A DNA stretch of 64,000 nt from Dehalococcoidia bacterium (GTDB lineage Bacteria; Chloroflexota; Dehalococcoidia; Bin125), in the NCBI GenBank assembly GCA_022826965.1, contig JAJDTU010000001.1, positions 186,001 through 250,000 of the forward strand. Direction: 5' to 3'. Of this stretch, positions 5,576 to 30,837 are shown one piece after another. How positions within the stretch are numbered: position 1 is the first letter of the stretch; each line of letters begins with the position of its first letter. The notes beneath the pieces are model-generated. The model was not told the DNA's origin. It ran no database searches and saw only the letters and a list, made by a program, of their open reading frames with translations. The translations under genes and the position numbers were made by a program.

Positions 5576-5592
5576 CTCGGGCTGGTTCTGTT

Positions 5593-5774
5593 CGTCCAGG
5601 TGCCCGTCCCGGGAGAATAGGGAAGTCGGTGCAAATCCGACGCGGTAGCGCCACTGTTAGCGGGGCTGACTCGATTGAGTGAGCAGATCGGAGCGCCGAG
5701 ACTCACTGTCGCCAAGGCGATGGGAAGGGCTCGGCAGCAACCTCCGCCCGTAAGCCAGGAGACCTGCCTGGACG
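5593..5774 (+). promoter_or_regulatory. cobalamin (AdoCbl) riboswitch
   Basis: Classic B12 aptamer. The P1 helix closes perfectly: CGTCCAGG at 5593-5600 pairs with CCTGGACG at 5767-5774. Inside are the conserved GGTGCCC start, GGGAGAATAGGGAA, the repeated CGGTGCAAATCCG hairpin, GCGCCACTGT and the B12 box AGCCAGGAGACCTGCC (about 5753-5768). The element sits before an uptake and cobalamin-assembly operon and is followed by an intrinsic terminator before the first gene. Control by premature termination when adenosylcobalamin is bound is the likely mode. Confidence 0.95.
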
Positions 5775-5840
5775 AGAGGTGATGACTCTCCGCATTAGAG
5801 GGGTCCCTCGATCTCCGGGTCGAGTTCCCGGTCGATCGAA

Positions 5841-26116: not shown

Positions 26117-26222
26117 GGGAATCTCCTTGGAGTCGTCGATCGAGTGCAAACTAACACAGGCGCTGGCCAGCGGCTGCCAATGCACAAGGCGCCGGTATTC
26201 TGCTCTCCGACAAGGAGTCCCT

Positions 26223-29200
26223 ATGCCCGTCAGCAAACTCTTGGTCGCCAATCGTGGCGAGATCGCGATTCGGATCATCCGCGCCGCGCGCGAACTTGGC
26301 ATTGCCTCGGTCGCGATCCACTCACAGGACGATGCCGACTCGCTGCACGTTCGCCTCGCGGACGAAGCGGTTGCACTGGACGGCGCCGGCGCTCGCGCCT
26401 ACCTCGAAGTCGAATCGGTCGTCGGAGCTGCGACGGACGCCGGATGCGACGCGCTGCATCCCGGTTACGGCTTCCTCGCCGAAAGCGCGGAGCTCTCCAG
26501 GACCTGTGACGACGCAGGAATCACCTTCGTCGGGCCGACGCCCGAATCGCTCGAACTGTTCGGCGACAAGGCGCGCGCCCGGGCGCTGGCCGTGGAGCTT
26601 GCCGTACCAGTTCTTCCGGGGACTGAGGCACCTGTTGACCTCGCCGGCGCGACCGACTTCTTCCGCTCGCTCGGCGACGGCGGCGCGATGGTGCTCAAAG
26701 CGATCGCGGGTGGTGGAGGTCGTGGGATGCGTGTGGTCACAGCGGCGGACCAGATTGCCGAGGCGTTCGAGCGGTGCCAGTCGGAGGCCGCCGCGGCGTT
26801 CGGCAACGGCGATTTGCTGGTCGAACGGCTGATGACCCGAGCACGGCACGTGGAAGTCCAGATCGTTGGTGATGGCTCGGGTGCGGTCGCGCACCTGGGC
26901 GAGCGTGAATGCAGCCTGCAGCGGCGGCACCAGAAGGTCGTCGAGTGGGCGCCGAGCCCATCGATCTCCGACCAGACGCGCGAGCGTCTGACCTCCGCCG
27001 CTGTGCGGCTGGCGTCCTCAGACAACTACCGGAGCCTGGGCACATTTGAGTTCCTCGTCAATGCCGAAGACGAGTCGGATCTGGCGTTCATCGAGGCGAA
27101 TCCTCGTCTACAGGTGGAGCACACGGTGACCGAGGAGGTGACCGGCGTCGATCTCGTCCGCTCCCAATTGCGAATCGCGGGAGGCGAGTCGCTAGAGGCG
27201 GTCGGTCTCTCGCAATCGAGTGTCCCGGGTGCGCGCGGATTCGCGATCCAGGCGCGGGTCAATATGGAGCGGATGGAGCCGAGCGGGGAGGTACGGCCTT
27301 CGGGCGGGACGCTGACCGCGTTCGAACCACCATCCGGACCTGGCGTTCGGGTCGACAGTTATGGCTATCCCGGCTACACGACCAATCCCAACTTCGACTC
27401 ACTGCTGGCCAAGGTGATTACCTACTCCGCCTCGGCCGACTTCAGTGATGTCGTCGGCCGGACACGGCGAGCCCTGGCCGAATTTCGGATCGAGGGAGTT
27501 GAAGCCAATCTCTCGTTCCTCGAGCACTCGCTGGCACATGACGACTTCTGCTCGGGTGGCATCTACACCCGCTGGGTGGACGACCATGTCGCCGAACTGG
27601 CGACGCCGCAGGTCGAGGCGGCCGATCAGAGTGGAGCTTCCGGTTTGCAGGCCGGCCTCGCCGGAGCGCAACTCGACACGCTCGATCCGCTCGCCGGATT
27701 GAACTACTTCCGCGAGGGCTCAGGCACGAGAGCCGGCCAGGGCGTTGCCACCATGACGCCGGGGACGCAACCGGCGCCCAACATCGTCGGACCGCCGGGC
27801 ACCGAAGCGATCCCCTCACCGCTCCAGGGCACGATCATTCAGATCCTGGTTGAGGAAGGCGACGCCGTCCGCGAGGGCCAGCAAATGTTCGTGATGGACT
27901 CGATGAAGATGGAGCACATCATCAACTGCGACATCGGCGGCTACCTGCGACAACTCACGGTCGCGGTCGGCGATGTGGTCTACGAGGGACACCCGCTCGC
28001 CTTTATCGAACAGGCCGATGTTGGCGATGCGATCCATGAGGAAGAAGCAGAGATCGACCTCGACTACATCCGGCCCGACCTGCAGAAGCTGTTCGACAAT
28101 CTCGACGCGGGCAAAGACGAGAACCGTGAACCGTGGGTCGAGCGACGGCATGCGAAGGGCAAGCTGACCCAGCGCGAGAGCCTGGCGGAGCTGGTCGACG
28201 AGGGCACCTGGGTAGAGATGGGCGAGCTGGTCCTCCCCGCTCGACATCGGATCATGTCGTTCGAGGAGATGCGAGTACGCGCTCCGGCCGACGGGATGAT
28301 CACCGGGATCGGCACAGTCAACGGAAACCTGTTCGACGAGCAGCGCGCGACCACGCTGGTCGCGATGTACGACGAGACCGTCTGGGCCGGCACGCAGGGC
28401 ATGATGGGTCACCAGAAGACGGACCGGGTGATCAAGTTCGCCGACGAACAGGCGACACCGCTGATCGTCTGGGCCGAAGGAGCCGGCGGTCGTTCCGGCG
28501 ACACGGACTTCTCCGATGTCTCCTCCGCCGGGCAGTGGGTGCCGACCTACGACATGATGGCGCGAATCAGCGGCACCGTGCCGATGATCGGCATCACCGC
28601 CGGGCGGACCTTCGCCGGCAACGCGTCGATACTCGGGATCACCGACTGCATCATCGCCACCCGCGATGCCAACATCGGCATGGGCGGACCGGCGACGATC
28701 GAGGGCGGCGGTCTGGGATTGTTCACCCCTGAAGAGATTGGGCCGATGTCCGACCTCGGACCCGCCGGCAGCGTCGACATCCTGGTCAACGACGAACACG
28801 AAGCGATCGCCGCAGCGAAACAGTACCTCTCCTACTTCCAGGGCTCGATTCCGAGCTGGGATTGCGTCGATCAGCGACACCTACGGCACGCGATTCCCGA
28901 GAATCGCAAGCGTCCCTTCAGCGTGCGCAAGGTGATCGAGCAGATGGCGGATATCGACTCGGTGCTGGAACTGCGCGGCGAGTTCGGGGTCGGGATCATT
29001 ACCTCGTTGATTCGAATCGAGGGTCATCCGATCGGCGTCATCGCGAACAACAACCAGCATCTCGGTGGCGCGGTCGACAGCGATGGCGCAGACAAGCTCT
29101 GCCGCTTCGCGCAGCTCTGCGACTGCTTCAATATTCCGATTCTCGTGCTGGTCGACACGACCGGGATGATGGTTGGCCCCGACATCGAGCGCACCGGCCT

Positions 29201-29630
29201 CGCCCGCAAGTGCAACAACGTCTTCGTCACGCTGGCCAACGCGCAGTCGCCGCGATTCACGATCATCCTGCGCAAGTCCTACGGTCTGGCCGCACAGGCG
29301 ATGATGACCGGCAGCTCGCGCGCGCCGCTGTTCGCGCTGGCCTGGCCGACGGCGGAGTTAGGCGGCATGAACCTCGAAGCGGCCGTCCGCCTCGGCAACA
29401 GGGCCGAGCTCGAGGCGATCGAGGACATTGAGGAACGCGCCGCTCGCTACGAGGCGCTGGTCGCCGACGCCTATTGGAGGGGCAATGCGATCAACTCGGC
29501 CTCCGTGCACGAGAACGACGGCGTGATCGATCCGGCCGACACTCGCCGCTGGATCGTCCGAGGTCTGATGGCTTGCGAGAACCCCGAGCCGATCCGCCGC
29601 GGTCGGCGGCCTAACATCGACACGTGGTGA
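26223..29630 (+). CDS. single-chain acyl-CoA carboxylase (biotin carboxylase + BCCP + carboxyltransferase)
   Basis: 1135-residue polypeptide with all acyl-CoA carboxylase parts. Residues 1-450: biotin carboxylase (KLLVANRGEIAIRIIRAA, glycine-rich AGGGGRGMRVV, ERECSLQRRHQKVVEWAPSP, EANPRLQVEHTVTEEVTG). About 530-600: biotinyl carrier, with MKM and Lys562 as the biotinylated lysine (DSMKMEH rather than EAMKM). About 610-1135: carboxyltransferase halves (SFEEMRVRAPADGMITGIG, AEGAGGRSGDTDFSD, ITAGRTFAGNASILG, VIANNNQHLGGAVDSDGADK). The order matches the homohexameric long-chain acyl-CoA carboxylase described in mycobacteria. The start is ATG at 26223, 8 bases after an AAGGAG. Substrate chain length is not readable. 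Confidence 0.92.
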   Translation: MPVSKLLVANRGEIAIRIIRAARELGIASVAIHSQDDADSLHVRLADEAVALDGAGARAYLEVESVVGAATDAGCDALHPGYGFLAESAELSRTCDDAGITFVGPTPESLELFGDKARARALAVELAVPVLPGTEAPVDLAGATDFFRSLGDGGAMVLKAIAGGGGRGMRVVTAADQIAEAFERCQSEAAAAFGNGDLLVERLMTRARHVEVQIVGDGSGAVAHLGERECSLQRRHQKVVEWAPSPSISDQTRERLTSAAVRLASSDNYRSLGTFEFLVNAEDESDLAFIEANPRLQVEHTVTEEVTGVDLVRSQLRIAGGESLEAVGLSQSSVPGARGFAIQARVNMERMEPSGEVRPSGGTLTAFEPPSGPGVRVDSYGYPGYTTNPNFDSLLAKVITYSASADFSDVVGRTRRALAEFRIEGVEANLSFLEHSLAHDDFCSGGIYTRWVDDHVAELATPQVEAADQSGASGLQAGLAGAQLDTLDPLAGLNYFREGSGTRAGQGVATMTPGTQPAPNIVGPPGTEAIPSPLQGTIIQILVEEGDAVREGQQMFVMDSMKMEHIINCDIGGYLRQLTVAVGDVVYEGHPLAFIEQADVGDAIHEEEAEIDLDYIRPDLQKLFDNLDAGKDENREPWVERRHAKGKLTQRESLAELVDEGTWVEMGELVLPARHRIMSFEEMRVRAPADGMITGIGTVNGNLFDEQRATTLVAMYDETVWAGTQGMMGHQKTDRVIKFADEQATPLIVWAEGAGGRSGDTDFSDVSSAGQWVPTYDMMARISGTVPMIGITAGRTFAGNASILGITDCIIATRDANIGMGGPATIEGGGLGLFTPEEIGPMSDLGPAGSVDILVNDEHEAIAAAKQYLSYFQGSIPSWDCVDQRHLRHAIPENRKRPFSVRKVIEQMADIDSVLELRGEFGVGIITSLIRIEGHPIGVIANNNQHLGGAVDSDGADKLCRFAQLCDCFNIPILVLVDTTGMMVGPDIERTGLARKCNNVFVTLANAQSPRFTIILRKSYGLAAQAMMTGSSRAPLFALAWPTAELGGMNLEAAVRLGNRAELEAIEDIEERAARYEALVADAYWRGNAINSASVHENDGVIDPADTRRWIVRGLMACENPEPIRRGRRPNIDTW

Positions 29631-29667: not shown

Positions 29668-30837
29668 ATGACTGAGCAACCCTCCGGAGATGCCCTAATC
29701 CGGGAGCAGATTGGCAAACTGCCGGTCCCACAGTTCTCCGAGACGGCCTGGACGGCGCCGCCGCCTTTGTCGGAGGCGAGAGTGGCAGTCGTGACTTCGG
29801 CGGCGCTCTACCCGCGAGACGGCGAGCCATTCACAGTGACCGACACCAGCTATCGCGCGCTCGATCACGACCAGCGCCAGCTGGTGATGGGACACTGGAG
29901 CCCAAACTTCGACCGTTCCGCCTTCGGCATCGACTACAACGTTGTCTATCCCCTCGCCCGACTGGATGAGCTGGCCGAACAGGGAGCAATCGGGTCGGTT
30001 GCGTCGAAGCACTACGCGTTTGCCGGCAATCAGCCGGATGACGTCGCCACGATCCGGCATGACTCCGGTCCCGCCTGCGCGGCTGCACTGAAGGCAGACG
30101 GCGTTGATGTCGTCTTCCTGACTCCGGTTTGACCGCTCTGCTCGCGTACCGTGTGTACGCTGGCCCACGTCTTCGAGGCCGCCGGCCTGTCGACCGTGAC
30201 GATCACATCGATTCGCTCGGTCGGCGAACGCATGCGCCCGCCGCGAGTGCTGCATTGCGAGTTCCCGCTCGGACGGCCCTTGGGCAAGACCAACGATCCC
30301 GACTTCCAGCACGACGTGCTGCGTCGCGCGTTCTCGTTGCTCGAGCGTGAGTCCGGCCCGGTGCTGGAAGACCACCCGGAAGAAGTGGCGGGCAACGAAG
30401 AACCCTTGAGTTGCACGGTACCGCCGCGCTTCGATCCCGACCTCGCCCCCGCCGTTGACGAGGCCCGCGGACTACGCAAGGCGTATGACCGCGCTCTCTC
30501 CCGCCGGGGAGTGAGCGAGGTCGGCAACGCCGTTGACGCCGACGGTGTGCCGGACGCGCTGGATGTGCTGCAGAACATCGTTGACGGGACTCCGTGGAAA
30601 GAGGCGGGCATTCCAGGCGGCCACACGACCGCGCTCGCCAACGACATTCGCGCCTACTACGAAGAAGCCGCGCTGGAACTGACCGACGCACCCAATTCGG
30701 GCGGTCATCAGTCAGAAGCCTGGTTCTTCGAGCGCACCGAAGCGGGCAAGCTCATCCTGGCCGTGAGGAAAGCGCTCGCCGCGCAGGGCGCACCCCAGCC
30801 CGTCTGGTTCTACATGGCGCCGATGTACCGCAGTTGA
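29668..30837 (+). CDS. selenoprotein B-like protein (GrdB family), in-frame TGA read as selenocysteine
   Basis: One frame of 389 residues interrupted by TGA at 30130-30132 (codon 155). The second half continues in the same frame with no frameshift. Around the TGA the protein reads FLTPV-U-PLCSRTVCTLAHVFEAAG, a U-x-x-C redox motif. The N-terminal part (DTSYRALDHDQRQLVMGHW, DRSAFGIDYNVVYPLARLDELAEQGAIG, HYAFAGNQPDD) and downstream RVLHCEFPLGRPLG match the glycine/betaine/sarcosine/D-proline reductase selenoprotein B family. Many aerobic members have Cys here. A hairpin follows the TGA (separate entry). The C-terminal 120 residues are unassigned. It starts 37 bp after the carboxylase with GGGAAG upstream. 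Redox partner and substrate are unknown. Confidence 0.85.
30130..30164 (+). promoter_or_regulatory. candidate bacterial SECIS element after the in-frame TGA
   Basis: GCGTAC (30144-30149) pairs perfectly with GTACGC (30155-30160), closing the five-base loop CGTGT. Below a C-T mismatch three more pairs extend the stem (30140-30142 with 30162-30164). The loop begins 18 nt after the TGA, contains GU, and has G in its second position. Known bacterial SECIS hairpins bound by SelB lie 16-37 nt after UGA with a guanine early in the loop. Confidence 0.7.

What the first reader, a model, noticed from the sequence alone, without database searches (positions are those of the whole stretch)
29668..30837. 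GrdB-family selenoprotein with an in-frame TGA in a U-P-L-C motif
Two frames that look like separate genes are in the same reading frame, separated only by TGA at codon 155. The protein on both sides is continuous with the selenoprotein B family of glycine/betaine/sarcosine/D-proline reductases, and the TGA sits where a redox Sec or Cys is expected (TPV-U-PLC). No frameshift and no other stop codon. A redox selenoprotein beside a single-chain acyl-CoA carboxylase is an unusual context, and the C-terminal 120 residues are unassigned.
Basis: partly seen in the sequence, partly recalled or inferred. Interest (0 to 1): 0.85.

Follow-up and report, generated by a model that had tools for sequence, protein, structure and literature searches.

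The report
Partnerless GrdB/PrdB-type selenoprotein with UPLC motif
A marine-type Chloroflexota bacterium carries a real selenium-containing enzyme, read through an in-frame UGA stop codon; it resembles the enzymes with which anaerobes reduce glycine and proline, but its genome lacks their partner subunit and the protein has an extra helical domain of unknown fold, so its substrate is an open question in a widespread and abundant group.

Summary
Window 29668-30837 (+) is one 389-residue frame with a single in-frame TGA at codon 155 (TPV-U-PLC). It is a selenoprotein by independent lines: all 80 homologues fetched (46-93% identical, several phyla) and the genome's three paralogues have TGA there; a hairpin 15-31 nt from the TGA covaries and covers the six most synonymously constrained codons of the gene; selection is equally strong on both sides of the TGA; the genome has selA, selB, selD and tRNA-Sec. 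The TGA aligns with that of GrdB genes found with their partner GrdE. It is not a GrdB or PrdB: it falls below every NCBIfam cut-off for them, lacks GrdB's N-terminal domain and UGTxTRxG motif, has UPLC instead, carries an extra 145-residue helical domain with an invariant Cys249 and no PDB match, and the genome lacks the PrdA/GrdE partner (PF09338). Marine metagenome studies filed UxxC 'PrdB' proteins as abundant; this is probably part of that pool. The carboxylase next door is an LCC-type single-chain enzyme, collinear only in the close clade. Proposed: a stand-alone Sec155/Cys158 reductase in small-molecule catabolism, substrate unknown. The selenoprotein is near certain; the reaction is inferred.

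The parts
29668..30834 (+). selenoprotein gene, 389 residues, TGA (Sec) at codon 155
   Evidence: all 80 homologues have TGA at this codon and conserved sequence on both sides
30130..30132 (+). in-frame TGA, Sec155 of the U-P-L-C motif
   Evidence: 80 of 80 homologues TGA; aligns with the TGA of GrdB genes from genomes with GrdE
30144..30160 (+). SECIS-type hairpin GCGTAC-CGTGT-GTACGC, bases 15-31 counted from the T of the TGA
   Evidence: 98% of pair cells formed in 74 distinct sequences, compensatory TA to CG and, in distant homologues, AT to GC; loop NGTNN in 68 of 74; codons 159-164 are the six most synonymously constrained of 376
29719..30387 (+). GrdB/PrdB-like core domain, about residues 18-240
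   Evidence: PF07355, TIGR04483, TIGR01918 matches; alignment to GrdB frames
30400..30834 (+). C-terminal all-helical domain, residues 245-389, with Cys249 invariant in the subfamily
   Evidence: no Pfam match for residues 240-389; AF2 pLDDT 89.7 alone; no PDB fold match; Cys249 in 80 of 80
30835..30837 (+). true terminator TGA, so TGA is both Sec and stop in this gene
   Evidence: homologues end at the same place
26214..29630 (+). single-chain acyl-CoA carboxylase (BC-BCCP-CT, LCC type) ending 37 bases before the selenoprotein ATG; probably cotranscribed
   Evidence: Pfam, best PDB match 4rcn long-chain acyl-CoA carboxylase; collinear in the close Chloroflexota loci

Best explanation
The gene makes a full-length, cytosolic selenoprotein by SelB-dependent recoding of UGA155, directed by the hairpin just downstream. 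It has the GrdB/PrdB core but works without the PrdA/GrdE (pyruvoyl) subunit: the Sec155 selenolate attacks an electrophilic substrate (a polarised C-X, S-X or N-X bond), and Cys158 (UxxC) resolves the intermediate as a selenenyl-sulphide that thioredoxin or a small thiol reduces again; Cys249 of the added helical domain is a candidate third redox or substrate-site residue. It would serve a step in small-molecule catabolism. Shown here: Sec coding (by comparative evidence), hairpin, conservation, absence of the known partner. Inferred: chemistry, electron donor, substrate class.
For: TGA in 80/80 homologues and in 3 paralogues. Hairpin with compensatory pairs and GT loop, top six synonymous constraints. 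Purifying selection after the TGA. selA 523 bits, selB 347 bits over its pieces, selD 352 bits, tRNA-Sec by Rfam and ARAGORN; selA in 29 of 30 carriers from other groups and in 91 of 102 class genomes with a match against 117 of 192 without. No PF09338 in this genome or its genus while 12 of 294 class genomes have it, and none in 29 of 30 other carriers. U155, P156, C158 invariant, Cys249 in 80/80 and 18/22 distant homologues. Neighbours are CoA-ester and oxygenase-type catabolic genes.
Against: No reaction can be tested here; no conserved gene neighbourhood names a substrate. A partner of another family could exist. UxxC is also the motif that the literature gives for true PrdB (PMC1088965).
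Confidence: 0.6

Rival explanations
1. It is the PrdB subunit of a D-proline reductase or the GrdB subunit of a glycine/sarcosine/betaine reductase, as its annotation by PF07355 would suggest.
For: Sequence relation to both; TGA at the Sec position of GrdB; UxxC as reported for PrdB (PMC1088965).
Against: Below every NCBIfam cut-off (115.8 against 300; 41.8 against 65.45). No PF09338 partner in a 97% complete genome nor in 29 of 30 other carriers. No GrdA found (control silent). UPLC instead of UGTxTRxG, no N-terminal domain, extra C-terminal domain.
Confidence: 0.08
2. A general thiol/selenol oxidoreductase (antioxidant or disulphide reductase) without a dedicated metabolic substrate.
For: UxxC motif; scattered neighbourhoods in different lineages; DsbD-like and thioredoxin-domain genes beside it in two Gammaproteobacteria.
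Against: Many invariant non-Cys residues (H76, S78, N80, D82, H115) look like a substrate pocket; several paralogues per genome suggest substrate diversity; the core is that of amino-acid reductase subunits, not of thioredoxins.
Confidence: 0.25
3. The TGA is a real stop and two polypeptides are made, or the genome reads TGA as a sense codon everywhere.
For: TGA is a stop in the standard code.
Against: TGA terminates this gene and the carboxylase upstream; hairpin and Sec genes present; all homologues keep TGA, with equal selection on both sides.
Confidence: 0.02

Closest known systems
PrdB, selenoprotein subunit of D-proline reductase (TIGR04483)
   Same: Same core over residues 21-226 and a Sec in UxxC
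   Different: 115.8 bits against a cut-off of 300; extra 145-residue helical domain; no PrdA partner in the genome
GrdB and relatives (PF07355, TIGR01918), including the GrdB-like FarB of monofluoroacetate reduction (PMC10838667)
   Same: Core domain and position of the Sec
   Different: No N-terminal domain of about 200 residues, UPLC instead of UGTxTRxG (STUG-type motif), no GrdE partner, 41.8 bits against 65.45
Marine 'proline reductase PrdB' selenoproteins of the Sargasso Sea and GOS metagenomes (PMC1088965, PMC2398784)
   Same: Same Pfam assignment, UxxC, aquatic hosts, high abundance (42 and 235 Sec sequences)
   Different: Those papers name them proline reductase; I could not compare the sequences themselves, so identity with this subfamily is likely, not shown
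Long-chain acyl-CoA carboxylase LCC (PDB 4rcn), for the neighbour gene
   Same: Single-chain biotin carboxylase, carrier and carboxyltransferase; best PDB match, 947 bits
   Different: Substrate not known

Membership tests
Sec-containing selenoprotein | in-frame TGA conserved at a redox position | tested here: met
   80 of 80 homologues and 3 paralogues
Sec-containing selenoprotein | bacterial SECIS hairpin directly downstream | tested here: met
   covarying 6-bp stem with GT loop at bases 15-31; similar distance to, and in some relatives the same GGTCT loop as, E. coli fdhF
Sec-containing selenoprotein | selA, selB, selD and tRNA-Sec in the genome | tested here: met
Sec-containing selenoprotein | selenium in the full-length protein | not testable with these tools
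   needs labelling or mass spectrometry
D-proline reductase PrdB (TIGR04483) | score over the curated cut-off | tested here: not met
   115.8 against 300 bits
D-proline reductase PrdB (TIGR04483) | PrdA pyruvoyl partner (PF09338) in the genome | tested here: not met
   no match in own genome; same search finds it in 12 of 294 class genomes
GrdB / selenoprotein B family (TIGR01918) | score over the curated cut-off | tested here: not met
   41.8 against 65.45 bits; a GrdB from a locus with GrdE scores 527
GrdB / selenoprotein B family (TIGR01918) | N-terminal domain and UGTxTRxG (STUG-type) motif, as in the GrdB genes found in loci with GrdE | tested here: not met
   window protein matches the profile only from position 203 on and has TPVUPLC
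GrdB domain PF07355 (Pfam) | score over the gathering threshold | tested here: met
   28.4 against 22 bits
GrdB complex | GrdA (PF04723) in the genome | tested here: inconclusive
   no match, but no control genome rang either

The most novel reading that the evidence does not exclude
A large group of selenoenzymes filed as 'proline reductase' in aquatic, apparently aerobic bacteria is in fact a separate enzyme class: partnerless Sec/Cys reductases with a helical domain of a fold not seen in the PDB, using a Sec-Cys pair and a distal Cys to cleave or reduce a substrate not yet known.
Probability: 0.45. Interest if true: 0.75.

Novelty: new variant of a known kind. Interest (0 to 1): 0.5.

Why it matters
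UxxC 'PrdB' proteins are among the most abundant selenoproteins of the sea (PMC2398784, PMC9402790) and are named after a Clostridium amino-acid fermentation. If the carriers lack the partner subunit, as here and in 29 of 30 other carriers, that name is misleading and a major use of selenium in aquatic bacteria has no assigned reaction. Every member examined keeps Sec, which suggests that the chemistry needs it. The protein is one chain and could be expressed and assayed.

Tried and rejected
Fold searches: whole model, no Foldseek match under 1e-3 and best VIA Z 7.9 to unrelated Rossmann-like and periplasmic-binding-like proteins, not informative; C-terminal domain alone, nothing with Z 5 or more. 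Sequence search of the PDB: no relative. Gene neighbourhood of 24 dereplicated loci: the most frequent family occurs in 4 of 94 neighbours, so no common partner; carboxyltransferase in 2. Rfam on the window gave only a cobalamin riboswitch. Code reassignment and sequencing error rejected. GrdA search gave no hit but its controls were silent. I could not obtain the metagenomic PrdB sequences to compare directly.

Full report
What is there. The window lies in a 3.0-Mb, 97% complete genome; the nearest relatives of this gene are Chloroflexota/Dehalococcoidia MAGs (that several of these come from sponges or the sea is my reading of isolate names). The frame 29668-30837 reads through one TGA at codon 155 to a second TGA at codon 390.

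Is the TGA a selenocysteine codon? (1) All 80 homologues fetched from the species-genome collection, 46-93% identical and titled as Chloroflexota, Actinomycetota (Acidimicrobiia), Gammaproteobacteria and Binatia or Deltaproteobacteria, have TGA there. In 294 genomes of the window's class, 102 have matches, and every match listed contains at least one TGA. (2) Bases 15-31 counted from the T of the TGA form a 6-bp hairpin with 98% of cells paired in 74 distinct sequences; in distant homologues the pairs change together (TA to CG, AT to GC) and 93% stay paired; the loop keeps GT at the same place in most. Sliding the partners lowers pairing to 1-74%; the slide by two is high because the stem holds a GTAC palindrome, so covariation is the better argument. 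Codons 159-164, exactly this hairpin, hold the top six of 376 positions for synonymous constraint. Some relatives (L055, L058, L065, L070) have the loop GGTCT of E. coli fdhF, whose SECIS sequence I recalled and confirmed by search. (3) dN/dS is 0.03-0.10 before the TGA, 0.05-0.12 just after it, and 0.04-0.08 in the C-terminal domain. (4) The genome has selA, selB, selD (whose frame itself holds an in-frame TGA) and tRNA-Sec with anticodon TCA. TGA is still a stop in this gene and in the carboxylase upstream.

What family? NCBIfam places it below all cut-offs, nearest to PrdB. To have reference genes in hand I took loci from class genomes that carry PF09338 (GrdE/PrdA): four GrdB-like frames lie in these loci in three genomes, and in the alignment their TGA coincides with U155; one scores 527 bits for TIGR01918. 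They have an extra N-terminal domain and T-U-G-T-x-T-R-x-G, of the 'STUG' type that PMC10838667 discusses as part of the substrate-activating site; the window protein has T-P-V-U-P-L-C. A third, short form (core only, UPVC or UPLC) also exists in the class (L147, L148).

The partner. PF09338 is absent from this genome and from every same-genus genome, while the same search rings in 12 of 294 class genomes. In 30 carriers from other groups it rings in one, while selA rings in 29. So the long UPLC form does not depend on a GrdE/PrdA-type subunit. selA also goes with the gene within the class (91/102 against 117/192, Fisher p 2e-7; genomes are related and some incomplete, and the 102 include true GrdB and short forms, so this is only supportive).

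The C-terminal domain. Residues 240-389 match no Pfam model. Folded alone it is helical with pLDDT 89.7 and has no counterpart in the PDB by Foldseek or VIA-align; absence of a match does not prove a new fold. Cys249 at its start is invariant in 80 of 80 and present in 18 of 22 distant long homologues.

Context. The upstream carboxylase ends 37 bases before the ATG and the pair stays collinear in the close clade, so they are probably cotranscribed; in L117/L032 (72% identity) a carboxyltransferase is also adjacent but in the opposite orientation. Elsewhere the neighbours differ: luciferase-like monooxygenases, SDRs, enoyl-CoA hydratases, transporters. This fits varied small-molecule catabolism and does not name a substrate. 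The single-chain carboxylase is of the known LCC type.

Mechanism. By analogy with GrdB/PrdB (Sec attacks a carbon bearing a leaving group) and with UxxC redox pairs, Sec155 should be the nucleophile and Cys158 the resolving residue. GrdB-like proteins have been linked to another leaving group, fluoride, in FarB/FarE of a monofluoroacetate-degrading bacterium (PMC10838667). Because no pyruvoyl partner was found here, amine substrates activated as Schiff bases are less likely; a pre-activated electrophile is more likely. This part is inference.

Prior knowledge. UxxC 'proline reductase PrdB' was the third most abundant known family in the Sargasso Sea set and a major family in GOS. I therefore do not claim discovery of the group; what I did not find in the held literature is the distinction of this partnerless long form from PrdB.

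Noticed in passing
G000 contig C2:373056-375534 (L106) and C4:595588-596697 (L107): Three paralogues of the selenoprotein in the same genome, two of them in tandem, each with one in-frame TGA; related genomes carry up to five copies.
   Followed up: partly
L109 (G000:C12:264989-265930): The genome's selD itself contains an in-frame TGA, so SelD is probably a selenoprotein too.
   Followed up: no
window 5581-5785: Cobalamin riboswitch (RF00174, 92.8 bits).
   Followed up: no
L117 (598-1260) and L032, next to the selenoprotein: A carboxyltransferase gene lies next to the selenoprotein but in the opposite orientation, so the association with a carboxylase may outlast the collinear arrangement.
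   Followed up: partly
L080 and L105 upstream of the selenoprotein: DsbD-like and thioredoxin-domain (DUF255-like) genes with a carboxyltransferase fragment nearby, in two Gammaproteobacteria.
   Followed up: no
G018 (L143, L147, L148): A 95% complete class genome with several TGA-containing GrdB/PrdB-like genes in which selA was not found; missing contig or a divergent SelA.
   Followed up: no
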